From NCBI GenBank assembly GCA_903813345.2, contig CAIIXF020000001.1, positions 31,846,556 through 31,910,555 on the forward strand: a DNA stretch of 64,000 nucleotides, written 5' to 3'. This document shows positions 1,447 through 64,000 of the stretch, one piece after another (position 1 is the stretch's first letter; each line of letters opens with the position of its first letter). A model generated the notes under the pieces. It searched no databases and was not told where the DNA came from. It saw only the letters and a program-made list of their open reading frames with translations. Origin of the DNA: Owenia fusiformis (taxonomy: Eukaryota; Annelida; Polychaeta; Sabellida; Oweniidae). Position numbers and translations under genes: made by a program.

Positions 1447-1705
1447 CAGTAAAATTAGTATTTGAAGGACAGTGTGAATAGGATGGGTCTGCCTCTTTAC
1501 AGTTATTTCCACTCCACCCAAGAAGACACACTTTAGCACCAACTTCATTACATTTGAAGTGCCCATTACATGTATCCTCTTCCTCACAGTACACATCACA
1601 CAGTGGTCCATAATAGTTATCAGCACAAGTACAATTTGGACTCCCATTGCTGTTTTCATGACACACACCTCCATTTTGACAGGGGTCACTGTTGCATCCC
1701 AATGG
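1447..1705 (-). CDS. Exon 53: EGF fused to DSL domain
   Basis: Phase 0 acceptor (AG at 1706-1707 on the minus strand) and phase 1 donor (GT, 1445-1446). It encodes one EGF starting GCNSDPCQNGG whose last two cysteines are also the first two of a DSL domain (NYYGPLC-DVY-C). The usual DDC-x-GHY motif appears as DTCNGHF, followed by VCLLGWSGNNC. It is the last exon I can place; the phase 1 donor shows the gene continues past the left edge, presumably into another slot exon. Confidence 0.82.
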
Positions 1706-2480
1706 CTAGAACATGCAGTAATCCCATTAAAGCCATAATATTTACTGTTCATGAAGAGAGATTTACAAGTAATAATAAAAAAGATATAATGCATGCGCGC
1801 ATGTATTATGAAATATGCACAATTTGACACATTTATATTTAGTTTGTCATATCCTCATTTTAATTGTACTTGGAATGATAGTAATGTACATATTTTTCAA
1901 GGTATGATTTAAACTGCCATTTTAATGTCAATTTTACAGTATTTTCGTCACAATATATAGAACTGTGTTATTAATATTTTAGAAATAATACAGAATTTAA
2001 AAGAAATATGGTTGTCATCTTGAATGCTGGTCATAACATACTATTTTATGATTTTTGCTATACCTCAAAAAGTAGTAGAGCAATATTGTTATTGTGAATA
2101 CTTAGAAGCATGGTGCACTGTCTTGTGTGTGGGAAGAAGGTGACCATTTAAACAATTTGTCCAATTTTAACTTTGCTATTTTATATGTGAATACTTGGAA
2201 GTAAAGTAAACTTTGTAACGGTAATTTGGTTAATACCTCTTTTTGTTTGATATATTTTGGCCAGTTTGAGACATGATTTCTAGCTTTATTGTCTGACATT
2301 AATTATTATATATATTGCGTACATAGTGTACTTCATTCTATATCATGAATCCAAATTTAATAATGACTGTTAACTAAGTACCATGTGCACATGATATCCA
2401 CACATGCACATTTTCTGTAACCACTGTATAGGGTGTAGATAGTTGTTAGGGTTTGCTTGGTCTTGGCGTTGCTGTAATCT
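1706..2480. other. Intron, nothing recognised
   Basis: AT-rich intron sequence between exon 53 and a TA-flanked element. I see no coding frame or repeat structure that I can name. Confidence 0.5.
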
Positions 2481-2481
2481 A

Positions 2482-3728
2482 CAGGGTGACCCAAAAACAG
2501 AACCCTCTAAAAATGTAATAATTTCTTATCTATCCTATCAACCCAATTTTTATGTGCATAAATTAGAATCTGTGGATGATAATGTGATACTAAGATTGTT
2601 ACAAAAAATTGACTATTTGTAATTTCATGGATGACCTTAGAATGTGTCTAATTTTGGGAAAATCAACATTGAGACAAAATCATATCTTGAGATTTTCAGA
2701 AGGAAATTCTAAAGAAGACTTGAAATCAATGTCTCATATTAATATTTTAATAGACTAGATGCAAGTTGAAATAATCTTGATTTACATCTAAAAATATGGT
2801 TTCGAAAATTGTTTATCAACTTTGAAAATGTGACTTCTAGCTTGGGTTGATTCCCCATAGACCCCATGTTACAAAATCACAAAAGGTGAAATATCTTTTC
2901 TTGTATTGGGCAGATAACATTTTTTTTACTGGACATGTTTTAATTTGCATAACTATTAGATGTAAATTTAGTTGAAGGGAACCTTCTACTATACCCGCCA
3001 TGCTATCTGGCCTGAACGAGCCACCTGGTGGTGAAATTGGTAACTACCTACTTGCATCTGCGTTATTGAAAAATGAAGAATAGGCAATGGTAAAACACCT
3101 AATAAAATCAGATGACTGGAAATTTTGGCCTCTGAGCAAGAACACCTCAAACGCTTTACAAAATTCCATTGGATGAATTCTTAAGAAATCATAAGACAGC
3201 AGAATGATCAGTCAAGACCATTGAATGACATGTGATATCGAGTAATTAAAATTGAGTTGGAAGAGGAAAAAGGGAAAATGTTACTCGATGGAAAAAATGA
3301 TCAGGTTACCTATTTAGGGAGGTTTCTTAAAATGTGGGTATGAGAACATCGGAAAGCATTGTGCGTGATTGCATTGGAGGTATTTCAAAAATATCAATCA
3401 GAAAGTGCAGCCACACCTAAATTTAAGATGGCTTAAAGGTTGCTGGGACACTTCCTCATTAATGATCGCAACCTCTACACTCACCAAATGCAGCTTAACA
3501 AGAAGCCAAATAATGTGGCGAGTTCAAACAAAAGATGACACAAAAAATCTTACATTTTCTTTTCTTTCACATTGTTGGCACATTTTTATTGACCATAACA
3601 GGAAGAATATTCAATGCTATGTCAAGAATTTGGTCACACATTGTCATCCATAGATGGTTGTTTCGCTACGTGAAAATGATTATATACATATTTAGAAGTT
3701 ATTTCATTTTTGGTTTTTGGTCACCCTG
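2482..3728. mobile_element. Tc1/mariner-like non-autonomous element (CAGGGTGACC ends)
   Basis: Left end CAGGGTGACCCAAAAAC follows TA. The right end, read in reverse, is CAGGGTGACCAAAAACC. The length is about 1.25 kb. Inverted CAGGGTG ends at a TA are typical of IS630/Tc1/mariner relatives. No transposase frame is intact; short open stretches inside are not convincing. Confidence 0.55.
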
Positions 3729-3804: not shown

Positions 3805-3908
3805 AGTTTCACAGAAGCGTCCAGAAAAATTGTTGGGACAGCAACATTCAAAATCTCCATATTCAGAAGATTCTCCACGTATGCAAGAACCATTGTTAAG
3901 GCATTGGT
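3805..3908 (-). CDS. Exon 52: complete CCC-EGF domain
   Basis: Starts in phase 1 and ends in phase 0 (GAA ACT before GTAAGT). It encodes DQCLNNGSC, then ECCC, then FSGRFCET. In the other 12 modules the intron falls just after the CCC-x-x-G, splitting the domain; here the whole domain, including its last cysteine, is in one exon that joins directly to exon 53. An intron was either lost here or gained in the others. Confidence 0.82.
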
Positions 3909-4099: not shown

Positions 4100-4426
4100 C
4101 TTGAAGTCTTTCTGCAAACCCATTGACATGATTATTAGGGTTACACTCATCATCATACACACTGACTGTCAGATTAGCAAACTTAGAATCTGAAGACGCT
4201 GATATTGAAAACTTATTACTGCCTTCATTGATCCACTCCCCAGGTGATGCAATCAGGGATGTTTCACTGACAAATCCCTCCACAAAATGTGAACCTTCTT
4301 GTGTTGATGACATGAACTCCATTCTTCCATTTAAACTACTTAGTTCATCCTGATAGAGTGTGAGTTTAAAGGTGAAGTTTACTCCATTGTCACATTGGTA
4401 GGAACCCTGCCATATACCACTGAAAT
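4100..4426 (-). CDS. Exon 51: domain X, divergent copy
   Basis: A symmetrical 1-1 phase exon. It begins DFSGIWQGSYQC, the X signature (G-x-W-x-G-x-x-x-C), and keeps the second conserved cysteine near the end (YDDECNPNN). The middle (EFMSSTQEGSHFVEGF) is less like the other copies. About 109 residues, predicted mostly beta by its alternating hydrophobic pattern. The function is unknown. Confidence 0.78.
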
Positions 4427-6963: not shown

Positions 6964-8664
6964 CATTTGCAGTTGCATTAACAGGAGGGGGGCATGTGCT
7001 CAGATCAACCATGGGTTGGACACACAATTCACCACCATAGTCAGGTATACATATCTTTGATCCATCAGTTGTATTGCATATGTAGTGCCCAGTACAGTCA
7101 TCTTTTGCTCTGCAGTAAATTTCACAAGCATCACCATAGAAATCATCAGGACACAAACAGCTATAATTTCCAAGGTTCGAATTCCCAGTGCAAGTCGCAT
7201 TGTTTGGACATGGTTCACTCAAACATGGATCAGCAATGCTTCGCTCACAGAAGTCACCAGAAAATCCATCTGCACATGTGCAGTTTATTTCTCCATTGGA
7301 GCTGTCCTCACAGGTGCCATTATTTTGGCATGGTGAGCTATCACATCCTGGTAAAACCTTGGTTGAACAGTTCACATCAGTATATCCATCTGTGCAGTTA
7401 CATTCATATCCCCCAAGGATGTCAGTGTTTATACATGTTGCATTGTTCAGGCATGGTGTCAGATCACAGCCTAACATGATATTTGTCTCACAACGTTCAC
7501 CTGTGAATGATTCAGTGCATAAACATGTAAAATTACCATCATAAGTTGAGTTAAAGCATGTACCATTGTTCAGGCAAGGTGTATTTAATATACATGTATC
7601 ATATAATTCACAATTTATACCCGAATATCCAGTCAAACATGAGCAATTATATCCACCATCAAAATCTGTTATATTGCATGTTCCATTATGTAAGCATGGC
7701 TTTATGCTGCATCCATCTACGTTTTGGCAAAATTCACCTGTGAACCCATCTGAGCATAAGCAAGTCACATTACCAGCGTCTGTCAAATTACAAGTTGAAT
7801 TGTTCAGGCATGGGCTATTTAAAATGCAAGCATTTTCTTGATCACAAAATTCACCAAAATATCCATTTTTGCATGTGCAGTTGAACCCACCACCATCATC
7901 TGTATTATTGCATGTTGCATTGTTAAAACATGGCATCTTTGCACAACCAAGCTCTATCTCACAAAACTCTCCTCTAAACCCATCTAAGCAAGAACATTCT
8001 GCATCACCAGTATCATTGGATTCACAAGTCCCATTATTCTGGCATGGGTTATTGAAAATACACTCATCTTCTAGATCACATAGGTCTCCAAGGTATCCCA
8101 TCAGGCATGTACAGTTGAACCCACCACCATCATCTGTATTATTGCATGTTGCATTGTTAAAGCATGGCATCTTTGCACAACCAAGCTCTATCTCACAAAA
8201 CTCTCCTCTAAACCCATCTAAGCAAGAACATTCTGCATCACCAGTATCATTGGATTCACAAGTCCCATTATTCTGGCATGGGTTATTGAAAATACACTCA
8301 TCTTCTAGATCACATAGGTCTCCAAGGTATCCCATCAGGCATGTACAGTTGAACCCACCACCATCATCTGTATTATTGCATGTTGCATTGTTAAAGCATG
8401 GCATCTTTGCACAACCAAGCTCTATCTCACAAAACTCTCCTCTAAACCCATCTAAGCAAAAGCATTCTGCATCACCAGTATCATTGGATTTGCAAGTCCC
8501 ATTGTTAAAGCATGGTTCAGAAAAGCATGGAAGTGATGTCTCGCATGTTCTACCTGTGAATTGTTCTGCACAGTAACACTCAAACCCAGCATCTGTTCCA
8601 TTACAAGTCCCTCCATTCTTGCATGGATCCTCAGCACACCCAATTGGAATCTCACAAAATTCAC
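6964..8664 (-). CDS. Exon 50: 13 EGF domains plus DSL
   Basis: Phase 1 at both ends. It completes the EGF begun in exon 49 (GEFCEIPIG), then encodes 13 EGFs and a DSL (FYGDACEIYC, KDDCTGHYIC, then PDYGG with Tyr where W is usual). A two-EGF unit of 234 bp (GCAKMPCFNNATC plus ECIFNNPCQNNGTC) is repeated almost unchanged, a recent tandem duplication. Nearly every EGF has NNGTC or NNATC between its second and third cysteines. It ends CPPPVNATANG, leading to X exon 51. Confidence 0.85.
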
Positions 8665-9334: not shown

Positions 9335-9463
9335 CCTCATATTGGTCAGTACAATTGCAGTAGAAACTTCCAACAGTGTTGACACATGTGCCATTGTTCA
9401 TACAGAGTGTCTCGTTCTTGTCACATTCATTTATATCCTCTTCACACCGCTCACCCTCAAACC
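9335..9463 (-). CDS. Exon 49: calcium-binding-type EGF
   Basis: Phase 1-1 exon of 129 bp. It begins [10 protein letters not shown], giving the last cysteine of the CCC-EGF in exon 48, then [18 protein letters not shown], a calcium-binding EGF pattern (D-I-N-E-C). That EGF is completed by the start of exon 50, so the intron lies between its fifth and sixth cysteines. Confidence 0.84.
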
Positions 9464-9722: not shown

Positions 9723-9806
9723 CTGATTGACAACAGCAATAGAAATCTCCAAGGCCAGTTCCATTTCGAACACATGTTGCATTATTCTTACACGCTGATA
9801 TACGTT
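9723..9806 (-). CDS. Exon 48: first part of CCC-EGF
   Basis: 84 bp, phase 1-1. Encodes ACKNNATC, then GDFYCCCQSG. It lies between X exon 47 and EGF exon 49. The sixth cysteine comes from exon 49. Confidence 0.85.
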
Positions 9807-11130: not shown

Positions 11131-11460
11131 CAAAGATTCTTGAGCCAGTTAGTTTGCAGGTGTTTCCAATGTCTCTAGTCATTATTCCTGTTAAGTTTTG
11201 TCCATCAGAGCTTACTGTTCCATCAAGTCCACTGGGAACAAATCCAACAGCGGGGTGGCTACCATTACTACTAATAAGAATCGAAGTGAAACCTCGGGTC
11301 GATGCTGCATATGTGCCTTTTACCATGTACTCGTGTTCTTGATCTCTGTAGATGAAGTCAAATGTCCCCTCCATGGGATTAGTGGTGTTGACAACCAACG
11401 CAAATTCATAAATGTTTGCCAAGTCACAGTGAAGAGTACCTCTCCATTCACCACCAATAT
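11131..11460 (-). CDS. Exon 47: domain X
   Basis: Phase 1-1, 330 bp. It starts DIGGEWRGTLHC and ends TCKLTGSRIFG, carrying both conserved cysteines. The core includes PMEGTFDFIYRD and VKGTYA, matching the X pattern of a P-x-G-x-F strand and a G-T-Y turn. It follows the two beta-sandwich exons 45-46, so this slot holds two domains. Confidence 0.83.
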
Positions 11461-13916: not shown

Positions 13917-14139
13917 CTTGTTGGTAATATGCGCCAAGTGAGAAATAGTTTGGGATCTCCAGATTGTCAAAGGTACTTTCTGTGCCAATTGACAATGAAG
14001 TTAGGCCTTCAGGAAGAACATACTTATGTAAGTCTACCTGTAGAGCCAATTCATAACTTATGGCAATGGTATCATTAATATTTAAAAATCCTATCCTGTC
14101 ACCAGGCCTAACTCGAATTTTCCCATACTGAATGTCAAC
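13917..14139 (-). CDS. Exon 46: second half of a beta-sandwich-like domain
   Basis: Phase 0 in, phase 1 out. Begins VDIQYGKIRVRPGDRIGFLN and ends NYFSLGAYYQQG. 'Vqy-g--I-V-pGD-iGf' is typical of extracellular jelly-roll modules found in invertebrate surface proteins; I recognise the style, not a named family. It is cysteine-free, unlike the rest of the protein. It joins to X exon 47. Confidence 0.75.
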
Positions 14140-14371: not shown

Positions 14372-14634
14372 AGTATGTTTTCCAGGGCCACTTGGATTAT
14401 AGTATTGTTGAGCAACAAGTGTCAATTCAAGTTGCGCCTCTGTTGCTAACGTGTTCATTTGACGCCATATTTGGAACCATACAGGATTGGCTCTGATGAA
14501 ATAAGCTGTGAACTGAACAATGGTGCCATCAACTTCCACTTTGTTATCATCTAAGATAAAAACGGTATAGCCAGCCCCAGGTAGATTCTCACCTCCTGGT
14601 ACTCCATTTATTGGATGACCTACAAAGCCCAACC
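14372..14634 (-). CDS. Exon 45: first half of a beta-sandwich-like domain
   Basis: Phase 1 in, phase 0 out. Starts GLGFVGHPINGVPGG and includes VDGTIVQFTAYFIRANPVW and FQIWRQ, then NPSGPGKHT. Together with exon 46 it gives about 160 residues of alternating hydrophobic strands. It occurs only once in the window. What it binds is unknown. Confidence 0.75.
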
Positions 14635-15420: not shown

Positions 15421-15717
15421 CTTCTGGGGGAATGCTGTCCTCCACAATGCAGCCTTGATCCTCTGTTTGGTTTGTACACATTTCACCTTCCCAGCCAGGA
15501 AGACATATGATGCTGCCATCACTTTCATCGCACATATAATGGCCCCCACAATCATCTTTAGGTTCACAATACACATCACATGTATCATTGAAGAAATTAT
15601 CCTCACATTCACATGTAAAGTTGTTATCTTCTCCATCGATGCATGTAGCATTATTCTGGCATGGATTTGGATCACACATATTAATGTTGGTTTCATTGCA
15701 TGCTTTTCCTTCAAAAC
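15421..15717 (-). CDS. Exon 44: EGF fused to DSL
   Basis: Phase 1-1, 297 bp. Opens GFEGKAC (closing the CCC-EGF of exon 43), then MCDPNPCQNNATC, then the DSL (NFFNDTCDVYC, KDDCGGHYMC, CLPGWEGEMC). Ends VEDSIPPEG and joins to the beta-sandwich slot of exons 45-46. Confidence 0.86.
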
Positions 15718-16116: not shown

Positions 16117-16200
16117 CATCTGCACAGCAGCAGTAAAAGTCATCCGACTCAGATCCATTCCTTACACATGTTGCATTGTTCAAGCAAGCATCAACATTTA
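16117..16200 (-). CDS. Exon 43: first part of CCC-EGF
   Basis: 84 bp, phase 1-1. Encodes VNVDACLNNATC, then DDFYCCCADG. It lies directly after the lectin-type exon 42, in the position that follows X in other modules, showing that X and lectin-like domains occupy the same slot. Confidence 0.86.
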
Positions 16201-16424: not shown

Positions 16425-16652
16425 CTCTCTGCCAGTAACTAGCAATAGGAAACTCCTTAAAGTCCCTGACTGTGTCATTAAATTTTGCCAGTTCAAGTCC
16501 CAGTTGTTCCATCTCAAATGGTGTTTCAATGTGTGCGAAAGATGCATTGAAAGAGGCACATGTCGCATTGGCATTTGCATGTGAGGTTTGCCAATCCAAA
16601 TTCATGAAGTAGCAACTCTGCCCAACTGTAATAGTGAAACCACTTGGGCATT
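16425..16652 (-). CDS. Exon 42: N-terminal half of a C-type-lectin-like domain
   Basis: 228 bp, phase 1-1. Starts ECPSGFTITVGQSCYFMN and contains the lectin-type helix pattern W-x-x-S-H-x-x-A-x-x-x-C (WQTSHANANATC) followed by AHIETPFEMEQLG. It ends SYWQRG, before the part of a C-type lectin domain that would carry the long loop. The matching C-terminal half is upstream (exon 41), not downstream. Only 224 bp separate this exon from exon 43, with no room for the missing half. Confidence 0.82.
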
Positions 16653-16798: not shown

Positions 16799-16918
16799 CT
16801 GATCCCTCCTTCGGTACTTCACATAATGTCTGGGTTGTACCGGTACATCCTTCAAATTTATGGATGAAGGTAGATCGTGATTCGCCACGGAAACGCCAGT
16901 TTGTGACTATCAAACACT
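16799..16918 (-). CDS. Exon 41: C-terminal half of a C-type-lectin-like domain, placed first
   Basis: 120 bp, phase 1-1. Encodes ECLIVTNWRFRGES, then GCTGTTQTLCEVPKEGSG. C-x7-C-E at the end is the classic closing motif of a C-type lectin domain. In transcription order it precedes exon 42, so the two halves are swapped. No EPN or QPD sugar-binding triplet is visible. Confidence 0.78.
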
Positions 16919-18443: not shown

Positions 18444-18872
18444 CTTCTATATCTACATTTGATGTAATAGACTTTGGTATAATTTCTTCAACAGTACACA
18501 ATGGCTCTTCAGATTGAATGTTACACGCATCACCTGTCCATCCACTTAAGCAATCAAAACTGCCATCAGTTTCATCACAAGTGTAGTGGCCACCACAATC
18601 ATCTCTTGGTTCACAATATGTGCCACATGTTTTATTAAAAAAGTTATCCGTACAATTACAATTGAAGGTGTTACCCTCAGTGAAACATTGAGCATTGTTT
18701 TGGCATGGATTTGGATTACACATGTCAATGATATCTTCACAATTTGTTCCACTATATCCTAGTGTGCAGTTGCAAGTGTAAGAATCTGCTGTATCAATAC
18801 ATGTTCCATTGTTCTGACAGGGATCAAATGCACACTCATCCTTCTCAATCTGGCATCTATCTCCCTCAAAGC
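18444..18872 (-). CDS. Exon 40: two EGFs with DSL
   Basis: Phase 1-1, 429 bp. Opens GFEGDRC, then ECAFDPCQNNGTC, then MCNPNPCQNNAQC running into the DSL (NFFNKTCGTYC, RDDCGGHYTC, CLSGWTGDAC). Ends SNVDIEG; the donor (GTTGGT) is weak but in frame. Upstream of lectin-type exons 41-42. Confidence 0.84.
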
Positions 18873-19917: not shown

Positions 19918-20001
19918 CTTGGGCACAGCAGCAGTATGTGTCATTTGCACTTGTGCCATTATGTACACATGTTCCATTGTTTAAACAAATATCAACTTGT
20001 A
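19918..20001 (-). CDS. Exon 39: first part of CCC-EGF
   Basis: 84 bp, phase 1-1. Encodes VQVDICLNNGTC, then NDTYCCCAQG. Lies between lectin-type exon 38 and EGF-DSL exon 40. The upstream intron is 4.8 kb and repeat-rich. Confidence 0.85.
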
Positions 20002-24839: not shown

Positions 24840-25067
24840 CTCTCTGCCAGTAACTAGCAATAGGAAATTCCTTAAAATCCCTAACTAAGTCTTCCAACTT
24901 TTCGAATTCAAGTCCTAGTTGTTCCATCTCAAATGGTGTTTCAATGTGTGCAATAGATGCATTGACAGAGGAGCAGATCTCATCAACATCTGCATGTGAA
25001 GTTTGCCAATCCAAATTCATGAAGTAGCAACTTTGCCCAACTGTAATATTGAAACCTATGGGGCATT
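24840..25067 (-). CDS. Exon 38: N-terminal half of a C-type-lectin-like domain
   Basis: 228 bp, phase 1-1, close to exon 42: ECPIGFNITVGQSCYFMN, WQTSHADVDEIC, AHIETPFEMEQLG, ending SYWQRG. The preceding exon 37 carries the C-terminal half, so the swapped order occurs twice. The next exon is CCC-EGF exon 39. Confidence 0.82.
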
Positions 25068-25227: not shown

Positions 25228-25347
25228 CTGATCCCTCCTTTGGCAGTTCACATAATGTCTGAGTTGTACCAGTACAAGCTTCAGTTTGCTGGATGAAGGT
25301 AGATCGTGATATGTTACGGAAACGCCAGTTTGTGATTATCATACAAT
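25228..25347 (-). CDS. Exon 37: C-terminal half of a C-type-lectin-like domain, placed first
   Basis: 120 bp, phase 1-1. Encodes DCMIITNWRFRNIS, then ACTGTTQTLCELPKEGSG. Nearly the same as exon 41, and short flanking intron segments are also similar, so the two lectin-type modules arose by a fairly recent duplication of the whole C-half/N-half pair. Confidence 0.78.
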
Positions 25348-28073: not shown

Positions 28074-28379
28074 CCTTATCAGTAAACTTTGGAACTATTT
28101 CTTCTACTTTACACTCTAGCTCTTCAATTTGATTGTTGCATGTTTCACCTGTCCAGCCATCAAGACATTCAATTTTCCCATCAATTTTACTGCAAGTGTA
28201 GTGACCACTACAATTGTCTCGTGGCTCACAATATGTGCTGCATGTTTTACCAAAGTAGTTATCTTCACATGTACAATTGAATGTATCATTTTCACTGTAG
28301 CATGTACCATTATTCTGGCACGGATTGGGGTCACACATGTCAACATCTGTTTCAATCTCACACCTATCTCCTTTAAAGC
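28074..28379 (-). CDS. Exon 36: EGF fused to DSL
   Basis: Phase 1-1, 306 bp. GFKGDRC closes CCC-EGF exon 35, then MCDPNPCQNNGTC runs into the DSL (NYFGKTCSTYC, RDNCSGHYTC, CLDGWTGETC). Asn replaces the second Asp of the usual DDC. Ends KFTDKG before lectin-type exon 37. Confidence 0.86.
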
Positions 28380-29258: not shown

Positions 29259-29415
29259 CTGTAAAGCATAAATAACTTATTAAAATAATTCAAAGGATTG
29301 ATATAATACATGTTTTTTGTTTTTCATACATTTTACCCATAAATGTGGCACATCATATGCATCATACCTAAATTTAGGAACTAATGGTTGCCAGATGCAA
29401 ACCACCTCATACTAC

Positions 29416-37076: not shown

Positions 37077-37412
37077 TTGGTTGTCTTTTGCCTATAAGTG
37101 TGCAAAAGCCTGGTTGTGACTGTGCTAGGAGATTTCCAGTGATGGATAATTTGTCAGCACTAAGGTCTCCTAAAGCCGATATTGAGTCTAGACCAAACTG
37201 GTCACTGCCATCTTTTGCAAATAGCGCAAATCTACTAGTATTCTGAGAATAGACACCATTTATGATATATTCTCCAGCATTGCTGTTGTTCAAATAACGC
37301 AGTCTGAATAGTCCTTCTGGGCTTCTTACTAGGGATGTTATTTCAATGTCCATTATGAATGGATATATAGTTCCCTGGCAGTCAAATGAACCTGCCCATA
37401 CACCTCTCATAT
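37077..37412 (-). CDS. Exon 23: domain X
   Basis: Phase 1-1, 336 bp. Starts DMRGVWAGSFDC; core PEGLFRLRYLNNSNAG, INGVYSQNTSRFALF; closing cysteine in GFCTLIGKRQPS. One of the eleven X copies, with the standard length. Confidence 0.85.
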
Positions 37413-37711: not shown

Positions 37712-37973
37712 CATCAATTGATGGAAATCCTTTGTTAATAGCACATTGGAAAGGCTCTCCAACCCATGTTGTGCAACCAGGATCAGTCCAGTTTGTGAGG
37801 CATATTTTGGTTCCATCTTCATCACAAATGTAATGACCTTCACAGTCATCATTTGGTAGACACATTATAGAACAGTTTTCTCCATAATAGTTCTCGAGAC
37901 ATTTGCATTGAAAGTCCTCACCATCGGAAAGACAATAAGCCATATCTGGACATGGTTCAATGTCACATGGGTC
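37712..37973 (-). CDS. Exon 22: EGF fused to DSL
   Basis: Phase 0 in, phase 1 out, 262 bp. DPCDIEPCPDMAYC, CKCLENYYGENCSIMC, NDDCEGHYIC, KICLTNWTDPGC, TTWVGEPFQC. Length and borders equal exons 18 and 13. Ends NKGFPSIDG. Confidence 0.87.
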
Positions 37974-41099: not shown

Positions 41100-41177
41100 C
41101 TGGCAAACAACAGCAATAGAAGTCTTTAGGTGTTGTTCCATTCTTTACACATGTAGCATTGTTGCTACATATCTCTT
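41100..41177 (-). CDS. Exon 20: first part of CCC-EGF (short form)
   Basis: 78 bp, phase 1-1, two codons shorter at the start than most. Encodes EEICSNNATC, then KDFYCCCLPG. Precedes the large EGF exon 21. Confidence 0.84.
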
Positions 41178-41329
41178 CTAAATCTTTTGCCAAAAAATAA
41201 AATGATAATAGTGTACAGGCAGTTCATTTGAATGTTATTACATGTATATGAAATAATTAAATTTAACAATAATTCTTTTCTCCCGAAAAAAATTGTATTA
41301 ATTTGTAATTTACACTTTCTATCGAACAT

Positions 41330-41559: not shown

Positions 41560-41895
41560 CTGGATTTCTATGTCCAAAAAGCTGACAATCTCCAGCATAG
41601 ACAGTCATAAATGATCCCCTTATTTGTGTGCCATTGTCAAATACTTGTCCATTTAAACCGATGGCTTGAAGCCCAAAGATGTCTATTTCATTGGTAGTAG
41701 TTAATAAAGTAAAGGTTTGGCCATTTTGCTCATATGTTCCTTTAGCTGTATAATGTACTCCATCTGATGCGTTGTAACTCAGTTCAAATATTCCAGATGG
41801 GGTTGTTATATCTGATGTCACGGTGATGTTCAATGTGTAACTTAGAGGAATTTTACCTGTGCATTCCACGGAACCATCCCACATTCCTCTTAGAT
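41560..41895 (-). CDS. Exon 19: domain X
   Basis: Phase 1-1, 336 bp. DLRGMWDGSVEC, then TTPSGIFELSYNASDG, AKGTYEQNGQTFTLLT, GLNGQVFDNGTQIRGSF and GDCQLFGHRNPG. A clean representative of the X consensus. Confidence 0.87.
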
Positions 41896-43718: not shown

Positions 43719-43980
43719 CATTATATATCTTATATCCTTTGTTTAAAACACATTCATATGGTTCCCCAACCCATGTTTTGCAACCATTATCAGTCCAATT
43801 AGCAAGGCATATTTTGCTTCCATCATCAGCACATGTGTAATGTCCTTCGCAGTCATCATGGGGCTCACACATAACAGAACAGTTAGCTCCAAAGTAGTTT
43901 TCAAGGCATTTACATTTAAAGTTTGTTCCATTGGACAAACACAAAGCAGTCTCAAGACAGGGATCTGGTTCACATGGATC
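43719..43980 (-). CDS. Exon 18: EGF fused to DSL
   Basis: 262 bp, phase 0 in, phase 1 out. DPCEPDPCLETALC, CKCLENYFGANCSVMC, HDDCEGHYTC, KICLANWTDNGC, TWVGEPYEC. Close paralog of exons 22 and 13. Confidence 0.87.
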
Positions 43981-44164: not shown

Positions 44165-44413
44165 CTTTGGAATTTTATATTCACAATAAGTTCCATTGAA
44201 CCCATCCATACATTCACATAGATATTCATCTATTACATTGGACGTTTTACATGTTGAGTTGTTCTCACAAATATTGTCATCACATACATCAATGCTTTTG
44301 ATTTCGCAAAAAGTGCCAGTAAAGCCATCAAGACATACACATGAAAATGATGAACTATTTTCCCTGCATGTACCATTGTTTTGACATGGTTCACTTAGAC
44401 ATGGAGGTGGGAT
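44165..44413 (-). CDS. Exon 17: two EGFs
   Basis: Phase 0-0, 249 bp. IPPPCLSEPCQNNGTC, SFSCVCLDGFTGTFC, then DVCDDNICENNSTC and CECMDGFNGTYCEYKIPK. Between EGF exon 16 and EGF-DSL exon 18; the only 0-0 exon seen. Confidence 0.85.
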
Positions 44414-44602: not shown

Positions 44603-44739
44603 CTCACAGTTCATTCCACTAAAGCCTGGCTGGCATTTACACTCAAATGCATCAACAAATTCTTCACAAGTCCCATTGTTCTGGCAAGGATCACTTTCAC
44701 ACTCATTGATTTCTGTTTCACATCTTTCTCCTTTAAATC
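44603..44739 (-). CDS. Exon 16: EGF (closes CCC-EGF)
   Basis: 137 bp, phase 1 in, phase 0 out. GFKGERCETEINECESDPC, CQNNGTC, then CQPGFSGMNCE with a normal GT donor (GTATGT). Same length and phase as exon 4, where the equivalent donor is GC. Confidence 0.86.
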
Positions 44740-44993: not shown

Positions 44994-45077
44994 CTGGTTG
45001 ACAACAGCAGTAGATGTCTTCTGGTTTTGTTCCATTTTTAACACATGTTGCATTATTCTTGCATACTTCCTTTAAAA
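44994..45077 (-). CDS. Exon 15: first part of CCC-EGF
   Basis: 84 bp, phase 1-1. Encodes VLKEVCKNNATC, then EDIYCCCQPG. Confidence 0.86.
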
Positions 45078-45994: not shown

Positions 45995-46333
45995 CTGTCC
46001 TTCTGTACCCTACTAGAGCACAACTACCAGCAGAAAATGTCAGGAGACTTCCTTTTAATTCTGTGCCATTGATATTGACTTGTCCAGTAATTCCAATGAC
46101 TATAGCCTCAAATGCTCCAATGCTGCCAGTGCTTTTCATCAGTGTAAAGCCATTCTTATTTTTTGAATATGTTCCCGCTACTATATACCTATCAAGTGTG
46201 GATCCATTATTGTATTTCAGTTCAAATATTCCAAATGGTTTGGAAACACCATTTGTAACATTGATGATTAAGGTATAGAGCATAGTTGGCTCATTGTTGC
46301 ATTTTACATTGCCATCCCATAAACCTCTCAAAT
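45995..46333 (-). CDS. Exon 14: domain X
   Basis: Phase 1-1, 339 bp. DLRGLWDGNVKC, KPFGIFELKYNNGS, VAGTYSKNKNGFTLM, GITGQVNINGTELKGSL, GSCALVGYRRTG. Confidence 0.87.
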
Positions 46334-47970: not shown

Positions 47971-48232
47971 CCTCTGGTATTTCAACCCCTGTATCTACCA
48001 GACATTCATATGGTTTTCCATTCCATGTCAAACAGTTTGGATCAGTCCAGTTGGCCAAACACAGTTTGCTTCCATCAACAGCACATGCATAATGTCCTTC
48101 ACAATCATCACGGGGCTCACACATTACAGAACAATTTAGTCCATAATAGCCATCAACACATTCACATTCAAAGTTACTTCCATTCACAATACAACGTGCA
48201 GCTTCTGGACAAGGGTTTGAGTAGCAAGGATC
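47971..48232 (-). CDS. Exon 13: EGF fused to DSL
   Basis: 262 bp, phase 0 in, phase 1 out. DPCYSNPCPEAARC, CECVDGYYGLNCSVMC, RDDCEGHYAC, KLCLANWTDPNC, TWNGKPYEC. Ends GVEIPEG before X exon 14. Confidence 0.87.
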
Positions 48233-48339: not shown

Positions 48340-49061
48340 CAAATTCTGACAGTATGTCCCATTATAACCTTCTAAGCAATCACATATATAACCATCATTA
48401 GTATCATTTGATGGCACACATGTAGCGTTGTTCTCACATAAATTGTTATCACAGACATCAACTGTAGTTGCATCAGTCATTGTTGTGACATCAACAGTAG
48501 TTATATCAGCCATTGTGACATCAGCAGTAGTTATATCAGGCATTTTTGTGACATCAGCAGTAGTTATATCAGCCATTGTGACATCAGCAGTAGTTATATC
48601 AGGCATTGTTGTGACATCAGCAGTGGTTATATCATCCATTGTGACATCAGCAGTTGTTATATCAGGCATTGTTGTAACATCAGCAGTAGTTATATCAGCC
48701 ATTGTTATGACATCAGCAGTAGTTATATCAGCCATTGTTGTGACATCAGCAGTAGTTATATCAGCCACTGTTGTGACATCAGCAGCAGTTTTATCAGCCA
48801 TTGTTGTGACATCAGCAGTTGTTATATCAGGCATTGTTGTGACATCAGCAGTAGTTATATCAGCCATTGTTATGACATCAGCAGTAGTTATATCAGCCAT
48901 TGTTGTGACATCAGCAGTAGTTATATCACCCACTGTTGTGACATCAGCAGCAGTTATATCAGTCACTGTTGTGACATCAGCAGTAGTTATATCAGGCACT
49001 GTTGTAACATCGGCAGTAGTTGTGACAGCTACCTCTTTCTCACATCTTAACCCTTCAAAAC
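48340..49061 (-). CDS. Exon 12: Thr/Asp-rich repeat stalk followed by one EGF
   Basis: Phase 1 in, phase 0 out, 240 codons. GFEGLRC closes the CCC-EGF of exon 11, then about 17 units of 10-11 residues (ADVTTMADITT type: 14 of 11, 3 of 10) form a cysteine-free Thr-rich stalk, then one EGF (VCDNNLCENNATC). The underlying 33-bp minisatellite is in frame. Thr-rich repeats are often O-glycosylated, so a rigid mucin-like spacer is likely. Exon 8 has the same start with a very short Thr-rich tail. The reverse strand is also open but only mirrors the repeat. Confidence 0.84.
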
Positions 49062-49194: not shown

Positions 49195-49278
49195 CTGGAG
49201 AACAACAGCAATAGAAGACCTCATCCTCAGTTCCATTTTTCACACATGTTGCATTATTTTTACATACATTTACAGATT
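49195..49278 (-). CDS. Exon 11: first part of CCC-EGF
   Basis: 84 bp, phase 1-1. Encodes ESVNVCKNNATC, then EVFYCCCSPG. Close twin of exon 7; flanking intron is also alike (gttggccttgtgagttta). Confidence 0.87.
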
Positions 49279-49433: not shown

Positions 49434-49769
49434 CTCTTCTCCTGTGTCCATTAAGGGAACATGTTCCAACAGCAAATGTAACAAAATTTCCAGTCATGTT
49501 GTTACCACTATTCAACACCTTTCCAAATATTCCCATTGCCGCTACCAAGTTATCGGGTGTGTTGCTAGTAGTGATAAGTGTGAATTCTTTGGCTGTTTGG
49601 GAATATGTTCCACTGACTGTATAGTCTTTTAGGTCTGTGCCATTGTGGTAGTTTAACTCAAATGTACCTGTAGGGTTGCTGGCCTTTGAGGTAACATTCA
49701 CAATGAGTGTGAATTTAAGATCTGGCTCACCATTGCATTCTATAGTACCATCCCATAACCCTTTTAGAT
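49434..49769 (-). CDS. Exon 10: domain X (twin of exon 6)
   Basis: Phase 1-1, 336 bp. DLKGLWDGTIEC, PTGTFELNYHNGTDLKDYTV, SGTYSQTAKEFTLIT, GNNMTGNF, GTCSLNGHRRRG. Differs from exon 6 at about 13 of 112 residues. Confidence 0.88.
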
Positions 49770-50327: not shown

Positions 50328-51657
50328 CAGTATAATTTGTAGGTGTGTTTTCATAGCATTCATACTGTTCTCCAGTCCATTGGTTGCATTCAGTACCATT
50401 CCAGTTCTCAAGGCAAAGTTTCAATCCATTTCTGACATCACATGTATAATGACCAGTGCAGTCATCTGTAGGGAGGCAGAATGTGCATAATTCCCCAAAG
50501 TGATTCTCAGGACATATACACTCATATCCTTTCGAAGAATTTCTCTCAAAACATGTTGCCATATTAGCACAAGGGTTTGATAAACATGGAGGTGGTTCAA
50601 TCTCACAGTAAGTCCCATTGAAGCCATTAGGACACAAGCAAGTATAACCATCATCAGCTGCTATGTCTGTTTCACAGGTTGAATTGTTGTCACATAAATT
50701 ATTATCACATGGTTCAATCTCACAGTAAGTCCCACTGAAGCCATTAGGACACAAGCAAGTATAACCATCATCAGCTGCTATGTCTGTTTCACACGTTGAA
50801 TTGTTGTCACATAAATTATTATCACATGGTTCAATCTCACAGTAAGTCCCACTGAAGCCATTAGGACACAAGCAAGTATAACCATCATCAGCTGCTATGT
50901 CTGTTTCACACGTTGAATTGTTGTCACATAAATTATTATCACATGGTTCAATCTCACAGTAAGTCCCATTGAAGCCATTAGGACACAAGCAAGTATAACC
51001 ATCATCAGCTGCTATGTCTGTTTCACAGGTTGAATTGTTGTCACATAAATTATTATCACATGGTTCAATCTCACAGTAAGTCCCACTGAAGCCATTAGGA
51101 CACGAGCAAGTATAACCATCATCAGCTGCTATGTCTGTTTCACACGTTGAATTGTTGTCACATAAATTATTATCACATGGTTCAATCTCACAGTAAGTCC
51201 CACTGAAGCCATTAGGACACGAGCAAGTATAACCATCATCAGCTGCTATGTCTGTTTCACACGTTGAATTGTTGTCACATAAATTATTATCACATGGTTC
51301 AATCTCACAGTAAGTCCCACTGAAGCCATTAGGACACGAGCAAGTATAACCATCATCAGCTGCTATGTCTGTTTCACATGTTGAATTATTTTCACATATA
51401 TTACTTTCACATGGCTCATTCTCACAGTAAGTACCATTGAAGCCATTAATACACGAACAAGTATAACCATCATCAGCTGCTATGTCTGTTTCACATGTTG
51501 AATTATTTTCACATATATTACTATCACATGGCTCAAATTCACATGTTTCTCCAGAAAACCCGTTCAAACAAGTGCATTTGAATCCATTTCTAGCAGAACT
51601 GTTTTCTGCACATGTCCCATTGTTTTCACATGGACTACTCCAACATGGAGAGCTTAC
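50328..51657 (-). CDS. Exon 9: ten EGFs plus DSL (117-bp tandem unit)
   Basis: Phase 0 in, phase 1 out, 1,330 bp. VSSPCWSSPCENNGTC, then eight EGFs of 39 residues (EPCDNNLCDNNSTC, ETDIAADDGYTC, PNGFSGTYC), then CLSNPCANMATC merging into a DSL (HFGELCTFC, TDDCTGHYTC, CLENWNGTEC, WTGEQYEC). The homologous exon 5 has only one such EGF, so the array grew after duplication (or shrank in exon 5). Ends TPTNYTG. Confidence 0.88.
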
Positions 51658-55908: not shown

Positions 55909-55985
55909 CGTAGTTAATTCAGTTGTCGTAGCTTCAGCTGTTGTTGTGTAAGTTACCTCTTGGTCACATCTTAACCCTTCAAAAC
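55909..55985 (-). CDS. Exon 8: end of CCC-EGF plus short Thr-rich linker
   Basis: 77 bp, phase 1 in, phase 0 out. GFEGLRCDQEVTYTTTAEAT, then TTELTT, leading into VSSPCW of exon 9. Homologous to the start of exon 12, whose linker has expanded. The donor is taken as GTTAGT; an alternative in-frame donor (GTAATG) would extend the exon to 55891. The downstream intron is 4.25 kb, mostly the inverted-repeat element. Confidence 0.65.
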
Positions 55986-56157: not shown

Positions 56158-56241
56158 CTGGAGAGCAACAGCAATAGAAGTCCTCATCCTCAGTTCCATT
56201 TTTCACACATGTGGCATTATTTTTACATGCATTTACAGATT
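56158..56241 (-). CDS. Exon 7: first part of CCC-EGF
   Basis: 84 bp, phase 1-1. Encodes ESVNACKNNATC, then EDFYCCCSPG. Twin of exon 11. Confidence 0.87.
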
Positions 56242-57441: not shown

Positions 57442-57777
57442 CTCTTCTCCTGTGTCCATTAAGGGAACATGTTCCAACAGCAAGAGTAACAAAATTTCCA
57501 GTCATGTTGTTACCACTATTCAATACTTCTCCAAATATTCCTATAGCTGATACCAAGTCATCGGGTGTGTTGCTTGAAGTGATAAGTGTGAATTCTTTAG
57601 CTGTTTGGGAATATGTTCCACTGACTGTGTAGTCTTTTAAATCTGTGCCATTGTGGTAGTTTAGCTCAAATGTACCCTCAGGGTTGCTGGTTTCTGATGT
57701 AACATTTACAATGAGTGTGAATATAAATGCTGGTTCACCACTGCATTCTATAGTGCCATCCCATAATCCTTTCAGAT
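57442..57777 (-). CDS. Exon 6: domain X (twin of exon 10)
   Basis: Phase 1-1, 336 bp. DLKGLWDGTIEC, PEGTFELNYHNGTDLKDYTV, SGTYSQTAKEFTLIT, GTCSLNGHRRRG. About 88% identical to exon 10 in protein. Confidence 0.88.
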
Positions 57778-59167: not shown

Positions 59168-59675
59168 CAGTATAAATTGGTGTGATTTCAAGGCATTCAT
59201 ACTGTTCTCCAGTCCATTGGTTGCATTCAGAACCATTCCAGTTCTCAAGACAAAGTTTCAATCCATTTCTGACATCACAAGTATAATGACCAGTGCAGTC
59301 ATCTGTGGGGAGGCAGAATGTGCATAATTCCCCATAGTGGTCCACAGGACATATACACTCATATCCTTTCAAAGTATTTCTCTCAAAACATGTTGCCATA
59401 TTAGAACAAGGGTTTGATAAACATTGAGGTGGTGCAATCTCACAGTAAGTCCCATTGAAGCTTTCAAGACACAAGCAAATATACCCATCATCAGCTGTCA
59501 TGTCTGTTTTACATGTTGAATTATTTTCACATATATTACTATCACATGGCTCAAATTCACAGGTTTCTCCAGAAAACCCGTTCAAACAAGTGCATTTGAA
59601 TCCATTATTAGCAGTACTGTTAACTTTACATGTCCCATTGTTTTCACATGGACTACTCCAACATGGAGAGCTTAC
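59168..59675 (-). CDS. Exon 5: three EGFs with DSL (short twin of exon 9)
   Basis: Phase 0 in, phase 1 out, 508 bp. VSSPCWSSPCENNGTC, EPCDSNICENNSTC, CLSNPCSNMATC merging into the DSL (HYGELCTFC, TDDCTGHYTC, CLENWNGSEC, WTGEQYEC). Same ends and sequence as exon 9 but without the seven additional EGFs. Ends TPIYTG. Confidence 0.87.
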
Positions 59676-59801: not shown

Positions 59802-59999
<198 letters not shown>

Positions 60000-60442: not shown

Positions 60443-60526
60443 CTGGCTCACAGCAGCAGTAGAAGTCATCAATATTTTCCCCAGTTCTAACACATGAAGC
60501 ATTATTCTGGCATGCATCAATAAATG
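60443..60526 (-). CDS. Exon 3: first part of CCC-EGF
   Basis: 84 bp, phase 1-1. Encodes AFIDACQNNASC, then DDFYCCCEPG. Confidence 0.87.
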
Positions 60527-60886: not shown

Positions 60887-61213
60887 CTGTTCTTCTAGAA
60901 CCATCAAGTTTGCATCTGGATCCCCTTGAATATATTTCAGCACTCATATTGTCTGCATCATCATCTATTTGGCCAATGATACCATTAATAGGCAATATTA
61001 TTGAAGAACCATATACGGGAATTAAAGTAAATGACATCCTGGATAGTGAATATGTTCCATTCACTCCAAAAGATGTAATGTTTGTTCCATTTAAATACAT
61101 CAACTGGAAATACCCTTCTACCCTGGTAGCTCTTGGACTAAGAAGACCCAATGTGAAAACAAATGGACCCCCAGATGGGCATGTAATTGTACCATCCCAA
61201 AGTCCTCTGACAT
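60887..61213 (-). CDS. Exon 2: domain X
   Basis: Phase 1-1, 327 bp. DVRGLWDGTITC, VEGYFQLMYLNGTN, VNGTYSLSRMSFTLI, GSRCKLDGSRRTG. Its strand pattern matches the other X copies, though the second half is less conserved. Confidence 0.86.
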
Positions 61214-61414
61214 CTGAAGATACATATGTATAGCAACAATTTAACAAATGGCAATTGTTATAAGTGCAGTCAACTTCAGATAGTCATTTCTAGTACTGCA
61301 ATATAGAAGATATTAAACTAAACAATATATGACTATCTGAATATGGCCTTTATAATGTTTGAGAAATGTTTGGTCCAAATAATTCAGTTGACAAATGACT
61401 TAATTTAAACCCAC

Positions 61415-64000
61415 CATCTGTCTTTGTAGAGCCTGTAAAATGAAGACACGTGTATGCCTGCCCAGTCCAAATGTTACAATCTGTTCCATTCCAGTTGCTC
61501 ATGCATATCTTACTTCCATCGGAAAAATTACAAGTATAGTGACCAGTGCAGTCATCACTTTCTAAACAGAAGTTGCAAGCTTCACCATAATGATTTTCTA
61601 AACAGCTGCAATTGTATCCTGTGATGGAATCATTATCCACAACACACACAGCATTATCAACACAAGGATTAGGATCACAAACTAATGCCATGTTACAGTA
61701 TGGTCCACTAAAGTCTTTGAGACATTCACAGATGTATCCATCAGATGTAGCATTTGATTCCACACATGTGGAGTTGTTTTCACACATGTTAAATTCACAT
61801 GCTAATGTTTCGTTGTCTGTCTTGTTACAATATTGTCCAAAAAAACCATCCTCACATTCACAAATGTAGCCATCAAATATTGTGTTATTTTCAACACATG
61901 TTGAGTTATTTTCACACAGGTTGAAATCACAGGTTTGGTTGTCTGCATTTTCACAATACTGTCCACTGAATCCATCTGGGCATTCACAAATGTAGCCATC
62001 AGATGTTGTATTGGACTCCACACATGTTGAGTTATTGTCACAAAGGTTGAAATCACAGGTTACATTGTCTGCATTTTCACAATACTGTCCACTGAATCCA
62101 TCTGGGCATTCACAAATGTAGCCATCAGATGTATTGGTCTCTACACATGTTGAGTTATTTTCACAAATGTTGAAATCACAGGTTTGGTTGTCTGCATTTT
62201 CACAATATTGTCCACTAAATCCATCTGCACATTCACAAATGTAGCCATCAGATGTTGTATTGGATTCCACACATGTTGAGTTATTTTCACACAGGTTGAA
62301 ATCACAGGTTTGATTGTCTGCATTTTCACAATACTGTCCACTAAATCCATCTAAACATTCACAAATGTAGCCATCAGATGTTGTATTGGACTCCACACAT
62401 GTTGAGTTATTGTCACAAAGGTTGAAATCACAGGTTTGGTTGTCTGCATTTTCACAATACTGTCCACTGAATCCATCTAAACATTCACAAATGTAGCCAT
62501 CAGATGTTGTATTGGACTCCACACATGTTGAGTTATTGTCACAAAGGTTGAAATCACATGTTTGGTTGTCTGCATTTTCACAATATTGTCCACTAAATCC
62601 ATCTGGGCATTCACAAATGTAGCCATCAGATGTTGTATTGGACTCCACACATGTTGAGTTATTTTCACAAATGTTGAAATCACAGGTTTGGTTGTCTGCA
62701 TTTTCACAATACTGTCCACTAAATCCATCTGAGCATTCACAAATGTAGCCATCAGATGTCTTGGTCTCTACACATGTTGAGTTATTTTCACAAAGGTTGA
62801 AATCACAGGTTACATTGTCTGCATTTTCACAATACTGTCCACTGAATCCATCTGGGCATTCACAAATGTAGCCATCAGATGTTGTATTGGATTCCACACA
62901 TGTTGAGTTATTTTCACAAAGGTTGAAATCACAGGTTACATTGTCTGCATTTTCACAATACTGTCCACTGAATCCATCTGGGCATTCACAAATGTAGCCA
63001 TCAGATGTTGTATTGGATTCCACACATGTTGAGTTATTTTCACATAGGTTGAAATCACAGGTTACATTGTCTGCATTTTCACAATAATGTCCACTAAATC
63101 CATCTAGGCATTCACAAATGTAGCCATCAGATGTTGTATTGGATTCCACACATGTTGAGTTATTTTCACATAGGTTGAAATCACAGGTTACATTGTCTGC
63201 ATTTTCACAATACTGCCCACTGAATCCATCTTGGCATTCACAAATGTAGCCATCAGATGTTGTATTGGATTCCACACATGTTGAGTTATTTTCACAGAGG
63301 TTGAAATCACAGGTTACATTGTCTGCATTTTCACAATACTGTCCACTGAATCCATCTGGGCATTCACAAATGTAGCCATCAGATGTTGTATTGGATTCCA
63401 CACATGTTGAGTTATTTTCACAAAGGTTGAAATCACATGTTTGGTTGTCTGCATTTTCACAATATTGTCCACTGAATCCATCTGGGCATTCACAAATGTA
63501 GCCATCAGATGTTGTATTGGATTCCACACATGTTGAGTTATTTTCACAAAAGTTGAAATCACAGGTTTGGTTGTCTGCATTTTCACAATACTGTCCACTA
63601 AATCCATCTGGGCATTCACAAATGTAGTCATCAGATGTTGTATTGGACTCCACACATGTTGAGTTATTTTCACAAAGGTTGAAATCACAGGTTACATTGT
63701 CTGCATTTTCACAATACTGTCCACTGAATCCATCTGGGCATTCACAAATGTAGCCATCAGATGTATTGGTCTCTACACATGTTGAGTTATTTTCACAAAT
63801 GTTGAAATCACAGGTTTGGTTGTCTGCATTTTCACAATACTGTCCACTGAATCCATCTGGGCATTCACAAATGTAGCCATCAGATGTTGTATTGGACTCC
63901 ACACATGTTGAGTTATTTTCACAAAGGTTGAAATCACAGGTTACATTGTCTGCATTTTCACAATACTGTCCACTGAATCCATCTGGGCATTCACAAATGT
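61415..64000 (-). CDS. Exon 1 (partial): at least 18 EGFs plus DSL
   Basis: Open at the right edge; phase 1 donor at 61413-61414. It encodes at least 17 EGFs of 41-42 residues of the same unit as exon 21 (NADNQTCDFNLC, ENNSTC, SDGYICEC), then a slightly different EGF (CDPNPCVDNAVC) merging into the DSL (HYGEACNFC, SDDCTGHYTC, CMSNWNGTDC, WTGQAYTC). Unlike exon 21, the DSL is in the same exon. Many units are identical to units of exon 21 even at silent sites. 41-residue units lack one Thr codon. Confidence 0.88.

What the first reader, a model, noticed from the sequence alone, without database searches (positions are those of the whole stretch)
1447..64000. A single chain with at least 14 DSL domains
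DSL is the hallmark of Notch ligands, which carry one near the N terminus. Here 14 DSL-like domains alternate with other modules in what reads as one protein of over 7,000 residues. The cysteine spacing (C-x8-C-x2/3-C-x5-[C]-x5-C-x6/9-C-x8-C) and the (R/K)DDCxGHYxC ... CLxxWxG motifs match Delta/Jagged DSLs apart from one extra cysteine. A serial DSL protein could compete for, or cluster, Notch-type receptors, or show the DSL fold used outside Notch signalling. I know of no described family with this design.
Basis: partly seen in the sequence, partly recalled or inferred. Interest (0 to 1): 0.9.

Follow-up and report, generated by a model that had tools for sequence, protein, structure and literature searches.

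The report
Giant animal protein with 14 DSLs
A gene in an unnamed animal appears to encode a giant extracellular protein that repeats, 14 times or more, the small DSL domain known mainly from Notch ligands, but in a form that has lost the key Notch-contact residue and looks fused to, and partly still built like, an ordinary EGF domain.

Summary
On the minus strand, 53 predicted exons join into one chain of 7,040 codons without a stop, open at both window ends. It carries 14 DSL domains; 14 of 14 exceed Pfam's DSL cut-off. The 24 best PDB matches of a predicted EGF-DSL model are Notch ligands. The repeating unit is EGFs, EGF-DSL, usually an eight-stranded barrel (11 of 13 complete units), and an atypical EGF. 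In 12 units that EGF is closed only by the next unit's first exon, with C-x8-C spacing in 12 of 12, which argues for one gene.

Notch binding is unlikely: the Jagged1 Phe207 position is Phe in 0 of 14 copies and residue 206 is Cys in 14 of 14. An EGF precedes each copy, where Notch ligands have C2/MNNL.

More interesting: in 13 of 14 copies the first DSL loop is the last loop of a complete EGF, and the extra cysteine sits at EGF cysteine 2. This fits a published proposal that DSL arose from truncated tandem EGFs. Multi-DSL genes are already reported from cnidarians and bivalves, so I call this a new variant, most likely a structural or adhesive extracellular protein.

The parts
61415..63998 (-). 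U1 exon: 19 EGFs (tandem 126-nt units), last one fused to DSL 1 (DSL 61446-61604); open at window edge
60887..61213 (-). U1 barrel exon
   Evidence: model of U2 copy
60443..60526 (-). U1 CCC-EGF exon, closed by next unit
59841..59977 (-). U2 EGF-closing exon plus EGF; GC donor
59168..59675 (-). U2 EGFs and EGF-DSL 2
57442..57777 (-). U2 barrel exon (modelled copy)
56158..56241 (-). U2 CCC-EGF exon
55957..55985 (-). U3 29-nt exon that closes the U2 CCC-EGF; searched for because the model required it
   Evidence: (weak match, E 0.3-1.5)
50328..51657 (-). U3 EGFs and EGF-DSL 3
49434..49769 (-). U3 barrel exon
49195..49278 (-). U3 CCC-EGF exon
48340..49061 (-). U4 EGF-closing exon with Thr-rich 33-nt repeat array (48454-49021) and one EGF
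47971..48232 (-). U4 EGF-DSL 4
45995..46333 (-). U4 barrel exon
44994..45077 (-). U4 CCC-EGF exon
44603..44739 (-). U5 EGF-closing exon plus EGF
44165..44413 (-). U5 EGF exon
43719..43980 (-). U5 EGF-DSL 5 (modelled copy)
41560..41895 (-). U5 barrel exon
41100..41183 (-). U5 CCC-EGF exon
38157..40582 (-). U6 EGF exon (tandem 126-nt array)
37712..37973 (-). U6 EGF-DSL 6
37077..37412 (-). U6 barrel exon
35809..35892 (-). U6 CCC-EGF exon
35011..35615 (-). U7 EGF exon
34565..34760 (-). U7 DSL 7 (from third DSL cysteine; first loop in previous exon)
33540..34445 (-). U7 barrel fused to VWA domain in one exon
   Evidence: VWA PF00092 107 bits; sequence printed
33069..33152 (-). U7 CCC-EGF exon
31888..32960 (-). 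U8 EGF exon (132-nt repeats)
31579..31810 (-). U8 DSL 8, the one copy not fused to an EGF
30774..31103 (-). U8 barrel exon (donor uncertain)
30370..30456 (-). U8 CCC-EGF exon
29392..29826 (-). U9 EGFs and EGF-DSL 9; GC donor, uncertain
28908..29258 (-). U9 barrel exon (divergent)
28542..28625 (-). U9 CCC-EGF exon
28074..28379 (-). U10 EGF-DSL 10
25228..25347 (-). U10 exon of unknown family, C-type-lectin-like to the eye only
   Evidence: no Pfam hit
24840..25067 (-). U10 second exon of the same unknown module
   Evidence: no Pfam hit
19918..20001 (-). U10 CCC-EGF exon
18444..18872 (-). U11 EGFs and EGF-DSL 11
16799..16918 (-). U11 copy of the unknown exon
16425..16652 (-). U11 second unknown exon
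16117..16200 (-). U11 CCC-EGF exon
15421..15717 (-). U12 EGF-DSL 12
14372..14634 (-). U12 unknown exon Xa (donor uncertain)
   Evidence: no Pfam hit
13917..14139 (-). U12 unknown exon Xb
   Evidence: no Pfam hit
11131..11460 (-). U12 barrel exon
9723..9806 (-). U12 CCC-EGF exon
9335..9463 (-). U13 EGF-closing exon plus most of an EGF
6964..8664 (-). U13 EGFs and EGF-DSL 13
4100..4426 (-). U13 barrel exon (divergent)
3805..3908 (-). U13 CCC-EGF exon, closed within itself
1447..1705 (-). U14 EGF-DSL 14; donor at 1447, so the gene probably continues beyond the window

Best explanation
One giant animal gene encodes a secreted or cell-surface protein (7,040 codons in the window, open at both ends) built from at least 14 repeats of a unit: EGF spacers, an EGF-DSL pair, usually a calycin-like eight-stranded barrel, and an atypical EGF that in most units runs into the next unit. 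Shown here by computation: the predicted chain is open and in phase, the DSL domains match the DSL family, the DSL and barrel models are confident, and paralogous units show dN/dS below 1. Inferred: the protein works as a multivalent extracellular scaffold or adhesive glycoprotein. EGF runs of different length act as spacers, the barrels, VWA domain and other inserted modules act as binding heads, and dense N-glycans coat it. The DSL is a structural joint between EGF and barrel and is not a Notch-binding site. In 13 of 14 copies its first loop is the last loop of a complete EGF, and its extra cysteine occupies the EGF cysteine 2 position, probably bonded to the extra cysteine after the domain.
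For: 53 exons, 7,040 codons, no stop. 12 of 12 EGFs split between units close with C-x8-C, and a small exon that the model demanded in unit 3 was found when looked for. DSL above cut-off in 14 of 14. DSL model pLDDT 87.8; its 24 best PDB matches are Notch ligands (TM 0.54-0.58 by query length), and the Jagged1 DSL-EGF structure 2vj2_A, rank 36, fits over 47 columns at 0.9 A, E 1.4e-3. Position 207 Phe in 0 of 14 and Cys206 in 14 of 14, with F207A reducing Notch1 binding to background (PMC3888931, passages). EGF-DSL fused in 13 of 14. Profile alignment puts DSL C4, C5, C6 on EGF C3, C5, C6. Barrel model pLDDT 87.6, pTM 0.81. dN/dS below 1 in 10 of 10 pairs computed. 366 N-glycosylation sequons against a mean of 114 and a maximum of 141 in 500 shuffles.
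Against: No RNA, no N or C terminus, no signal peptide or membrane anchor in view, so secretion is inferred from the domains. Two introns need GC donors and some donors are weak (U8 barrel, U9, U12 Xa). 33 of 53 exons are phase 1-1 and so interchangeable: isoforms could differ. The proposed disulphide between the two extra cysteines was not measured: the tools gave no coordinates. The EGF reading of the tail is imperfect: its first cysteine gap is x5, whereas EGF C1-C2 is x4 in 88 of 93. The barrel has no significant PDB relative, so its binding role is a guess. A different surface could still bind Notch.
Confidence: 0.66

Rival explanations
1. A tandem array of separate genes, each with one or a few DSL domains, that only looks like one gene.
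For: Units duplicate as blocks (Mantel r 0.72, p 0.0005 over 10 of 14 units) and no RNA is available. Multi-kilobase introns occur between and within units.
Against: 12 of 12 unit-spanning EGFs are completed only by the next unit's exon, with exact spacing. No unit ends in a stop codon in the joined frame.
Confidence: 0.12
2. A Notch ligand decoy or clusterer: the serial DSLs bind Notch receptors and block or cluster them.
For: DSL fold by sequence and model. D204, G208 and H209 kept in 14 of 14, Y210 in 13 of 14, D205 in 12 of 14.
Against: Phe207 position is Phe in 0 of 14, R201 kept in 1 of 14, R203 in 4 of 14, F199 in 4 of 13. No copy sits next to a C2/MNNL domain in the chain: an EGF lies before each one (13 fused, 1 separate).
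Confidence: 0.08
3. The extra cysteine and the EGF fusion are late, lineage-specific changes to an ordinary DSL and say nothing about DSL origins.
For: The 14 copies look like descendants of one unit, so the features may reflect one event. No outgroup could be examined. Canonical DSLs also resemble EGF models at the tail without the extra cysteine (a PDB Delta-like DSL scores 21.2 bits with EGF_Teneurin).
Against: The extra cysteine falls at the EGF C2 position relative to the next cysteine (x5 in 14 of 14 tails and in 93 of 93 EGFs), which a random gain would not be expected to do.
Confidence: 0.45

Closest known systems
Delta/Serrate/Jagged Notch ligands (DSL domain PF01414)
   Same: DSL fold, six core cysteines, DD-x-x-GHY motif, EGF repeats
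   Different: They carry one DSL near the N terminus behind a C2/MNNL domain, and Phe207 is present in the 5 ligand alignments printed (of 12 hits). Here 14 copies, each preceded by an EGF, Phe207 lost, two extra cysteines
Cnidarian genes with 1 to 11 DSL repeats (Gazave 2009, PMC2770060, passages read)
   Same: Serial DSL domains in one gene
   Different: Described as composed only of DSL domains (one with MNLL and 3 DSLs), and as possibly misassembled; no EGF, barrel or VWA mentioned in the passage
Bivalve DSL tandem-repeat genes (PMC8166818, passages read)
   Same: DSL expansion by tandem repeats
   Different: That branch is said to lack EGF domains; a second branch with DSL, EGF and other domains is mentioned without architectures and could include relatives
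Capsaspora Delta-like receptor tyrosine kinase with two DSLs and EGFs (PMC4810162, passages read)
   Same: More than one DSL plus EGFs outside a Notch ligand
   Different: Two copies, receptor kinase
Annelid erythrocruorin linker chain (PDB 2gtl_N, 5m3l_N)
   Same: Aligned part has a similar overall shape to the barrel model, TM 0.66-0.67 by query length
   Different: Foldseek E about 3e-3, 11-13% identity, and no profile match by sequence, so relationship unproven; that chain N is a linker is recalled

Membership tests
DSL domain (PF01414) | Profile match above gathering score | tested here: met
   14 of 14, 31.6-54.8 bits against 24.2
DSL domain (PF01414) | DSL fold | tested here: met
   Predicted model of one copy (U5; best of five, mean pLDDT 48.1-87.8); 24 best PDB matches Notch ligands; 2vj2_A 47 columns at 0.9 A. 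Prediction, not experiment
DSL domain (PF01414) | Six cysteines bonded in consecutive pairs (PMC3415683) | tested here: inconclusive
   All six positions present (U7's first two in the previous exon), plus two extra; bonding could not be measured
Notch ligands | Notch-contact Phe207 (Jagged1 numbering) | tested here: not met
   0 of 14
Notch ligands | C2/MNNL domain directly before the DSL | tested here: not met
   In 13 of 14 the DSL is fused to a complete EGF, in U8 it follows an EGF; the whole chain was not scanned for MNNL and its N terminus is outside the window
Notch ligands | Short EGF1-2 after the DSL | tested here: not met
   The exon after the DSL is a barrel (10), the unknown exon pair (2) or the X exons (1) in 13 of 13 units whose next exon is in the window
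Notch ligands | Transmembrane segment | not testable with these tools
   C terminus outside the window
Calycin-like barrels | Eight-stranded antiparallel barrel | tested here: met
   Model of one copy (U2) with eight strands, pLDDT 87.6; listed PDB matches are mostly barrels, none at E<=0.001 by the tool's count
Erythrocruorin linker barrel | Recognisable sequence homology | tested here: not met
   Not among the 2 profile matches at E<=10
von Willebrand factor A domain | Profile match and MIDAS residues | tested here: met
   PF00092 107 bits; DSSGS, downstream Thr and LTDG in the sequence printed (MIDAS motif recalled)
C-type lectin domain | Profile match | tested here: not met
   U10 halves and the U11 second exon alone, and U10 halves joined in both orders: no Pfam hit; joined in normal order: no PDB hit. 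The U11 first exon was not scanned

The most novel reading that the evidence does not exclude
These 14 copies preserve a missing link in the origin of the DSL domain: a complete EGF followed by a second, truncated EGF that still keeps its cysteine 2, the step before Notch ligands lost that disulphide and put the Notch-contact Phe next to the vacated position. The ancestral DSL would then have been an EGF-derived structural or adhesive module, later recruited for Notch binding.
Probability: 0.27. Interest if true: 0.82.

Novelty: new variant of a known kind. Interest (0 to 1): 0.62.

Why it matters
PMC2725086 (passages) reports the proposal that DSL evolved by truncation of tandem EGFs, asks whether DSL and the Jagged1 EGF1-2 unit share an ancestor with loss of one disulphide in DSL, and concludes that the data gave no strong evidence. 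The precursor it looked for was a protein lacking one of the two, which is not what is found here. But DSL copies with a complete EGF fused in front and a cysteine at the EGF C2 position are a new kind of sequence to test the tandem-EGF proposal with. The gene is also a case of the DSL fold used in bulk without the Notch-contact residue, a caution for counting DSL genes as Notch ligands, and it carries an abundant barrel module with no Pfam match.

Tried and rejected
Rejected: C-type lectin for the U10 and U11 exon pairs. The exons look like the two halves of such a domain in swapped order, but the U10 halves and the U11 second exon match no Pfam family, nor do the U10 halves joined in either order, and the normal order matches no PDB sequence. 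Not accepted: kinship of the barrel with annelid linker chains (similar shape only); by Foldseek E-value nitrobindins rank first (about 1e-3) but with TM only 0.37-0.44. The viral structure library gave one match at E<=0.001, an uncharacterised giant-virus protein (E 6.2e-4), not followed up. The DSL profile found no confirmed relative in viral contigs (9 pattern matches, none confirmed); the barrel profile could not be searched there. No eukaryote genome collection was at hand. No tRNA, and no Rfam family at gathering score, in the window. The species was not identified. Dropped rows: unit 7 was left out of the DSL-only profile A5 (13 of 14 used); units 7, 10, 11 and 14 were out of the Mantel test (10 of 14 used).

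Evidence limits: the phase check is partly circular, since exon ends were chosen among splice candidates by phase. Several dS values are above 1 (saturated), some counts are small and pairs share units, so dN/dS is indicative. The profile link of DSL tail to EGF is modest (probability 61, E 8e-5, 20 columns) and used 12 EGFs that I picked from 93. The EGF_Teneurin model passes its cut-off (24.3) on the isolated tail in 1 of 3 window copies tried (U10 25.8, U12 22.6, U5 not listed), and of two canonical DSLs tried one scores 21.2 and one 10.0, so that test does not separate window from canonical DSLs well.


Full report
What is there. The window is intron-rich animal DNA (32-36% G+C in 4-kb steps). 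All coding signal of interest lies on the minus strand. The reading-frame list, splice candidates and two corrections gave 53 exons joined into 7,040 codons without a stop. The chain starts inside an EGF array at 63998 and ends at a splice donor at 1447, so the gene is probably longer than the window at both ends.

The unit. Fourteen units follow one plan with variations: an exon (or exon start) that closes the previous unit's EGF, a run of EGFs, an EGF fused to a DSL, a barrel exon, and a small exon with an atypical EGF written ...CCC (84 nt in 11 of 13, 87 in U8, 104 in U13). By pattern the chain holds 93 ordinary EGFs, 13 CCC-EGFs and 14 DSLs. EGF number per unit ranges from 1 to 20, with tandem arrays of 126-, 132-, 117- and 234-nt repeats. 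Eleven barrels are present. Units 10 and 11 carry an unknown exon pair instead, unit 12 has two further unknown exons as well as a barrel, unit 7 fuses a VWA domain to its barrel (PF00092, 107 bits), and unit 14's next exon is outside the window.

Is it one gene? In 12 of 13 cases the CCC-EGF exon lacks the last EGF cysteine. The first exon of the next unit supplies it, and the joined spacing is C-x8-C in 12 of 12; the 13th closes inside its own exon with the same spacing. Unit 3 at first lacked this exon; a search for it found a 29-nt exon at 55985-55957 in the required phases (the search match itself was weak, E 0.3 to 1.5). Two donors are GC rather than GT (U2 59841, U9 29392). This is strong but not RNA evidence.

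Are they DSL domains? Yes. 14 of 14 pass the Pfam cut-off. A DSL-only profile finds 12 PDB sequences at E<=0.001, all Notch ligands. The predicted structure of the U5 EGF-DSL (pLDDT 87.8) has Notch ligands as its 24 best PDB matches (TM 0.54-0.58), followed by Notch EGF fragments, and fits the DSL of the Jagged1 DSL-EGF1-3 structure 2vj2_A over 47 columns at 0.9 A (rank 36, E 1.4e-3). Paralogous exons show dN/dS of 0.13 to 0.68 in 10 of 10 comparisons made, which suggests they are maintained.

Can they bind Notch? Probably not in the known way. In Jagged1, F207A reduces Notch1 binding to background (PMC3888931, passages). The motif D204-D-x-F-G-H is anchored without gaps: D204, G208 and H209 are kept in 14 of 14. 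Residue 207 is E, T, N, S or G and never F (0 of 14); residue 206 is Cys in 14 of 14; R201 is kept in 1 of 14, R203 in 4 of 14, D205 in 12 of 14, F199 in 4 of 13. In the five ligand alignments printed (of 12 hits), position 207 is F. An EGF, not a C2/MNNL domain, lies before each copy.

What the extra cysteines mean. DSL disulphides pair consecutively, and the C1-C2 loop superimposes on an EGF C5-C6 loop, which led to the proposal that DSL is a truncation of tandem EGFs (PMC3415683, passages; repeated in PMC2725086, passages). In 13 of 14 copies here the DSL C1-C2 loop is the C5-C6 loop of a complete EGF, giving a 12-cysteine EGF-DSL. Profile comparison of the remaining DSL tail with 12 of the window's own EGFs aligns DSL C4, C5, C6 with EGF C3, C5, C6. 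The extra cysteine has five residues between it and DSL C4 in 14 of 14, the EGF C2-to-C3 spacing seen in 93 of 93 EGFs. On the other side the gap is five residues in 14 of 14, one more than the usual EGF C1-C2 gap (four in 88 of 93, five in 4). I therefore read the extra cysteine as EGF cysteine 2. Its partner EGF C4 is missing, and the other invariant extra cysteine, after the domain, is the likely bond partner. That bond is inferred.

The barrel. Eleven copies share G-x-W near the start, a cysteine after the first strand and one in the last strand. No Pfam match is better than E 0.029 in any of the 11. The model of one copy is an eight-stranded antiparallel barrel (pLDDT 87.6, pTM 0.81; strand count from the tool, barrel shape inferred from its matches). 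The tool counts no PDB match at E<=0.001. Nitrobindins rank first by E-value with poor superposition (TM 0.37-0.44); by shape GID4 (0.71), designed barrels (0.55-0.71), annelid linker chains (0.66-0.67) and nitrophorins (about 0.6) are closest among the 50 listed. I call it calycin-like and claim no kinship.

How the units arose. DSL and barrel similarities between units agree (Mantel r 0.72, p 0.0005, 10 of 14 units), so whole units probably duplicated. 33 of 53 exons are phase 1-1, which lets modules be swapped, as units 7, 10, 11 and 12 suggest.

Most likely role. The chain has 366 N-glycosylation sequons against a mean of 114 in 500 shuffles. The pattern C2-x4-S/T-C3, which I recall as the O-fucose motif, matches 83 times against 93 EGFs. 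With 761 cysteines, spacer-like EGF runs, barrels and a VWA domain with metal-site residues, an extracellular scaffold or adhesive glycoprotein is the best-supported reading. Tissue and species are unknown.

What is in print. My searches covered open-access PMC papers only. They led to cnidarian DSL-only genes with 1 to 11 repeats (PMC2770060, passages), bivalve tandem DSL genes without EGF (PMC8166818, passages), DSL in choanoflagellates and ichthyosporeans (PMC6040629, passages) and a Capsaspora receptor with two DSLs (PMC4810162, passages). I found no description of this EGF-DSL-barrel unit in the listings and passages seen, but most subscription papers are not in that library and I read no paper in full.

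Noticed in passing
25347-24840 and 16918-16425, minus strand: Units 10 and 11 share a two-exon module that looks like the two halves of a C-type lectin domain in swapped order (a circular permutation would explain it), but no profile supports this.
   Followed up: partly
14634-13917, minus strand: Two exons in unit 12 encode about 160 residues with no Pfam match or credible PDB match.
   Followed up: partly
48454-49021, minus strand: A 33-nt repeat array (17.5 copies) encodes a Thr-rich, mucin-like stretch inserted into a unit 4 exon.
   Followed up: partly
13 CCC-EGF exons, e.g. 60526-60443: An EGF variant that seems to lack the first cysteine but has an extra one between C4 and C5, matching one pattern in 13 of 13 copies.
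   Followed up: no
53016-54310 and 20518-20970: Open frames that resemble mobile-element proteins to the eye, inside introns of the gene model.
   Followed up: no
22897-23730: Tandem repeats around CCATGG palindromes in an intron.
   Followed up: no
Barrel model against viral structures: One uncharacterised giant-virus protein (A0A3G4ZPG9) matches the barrel model at E 6.2e-4.
   Followed up: no
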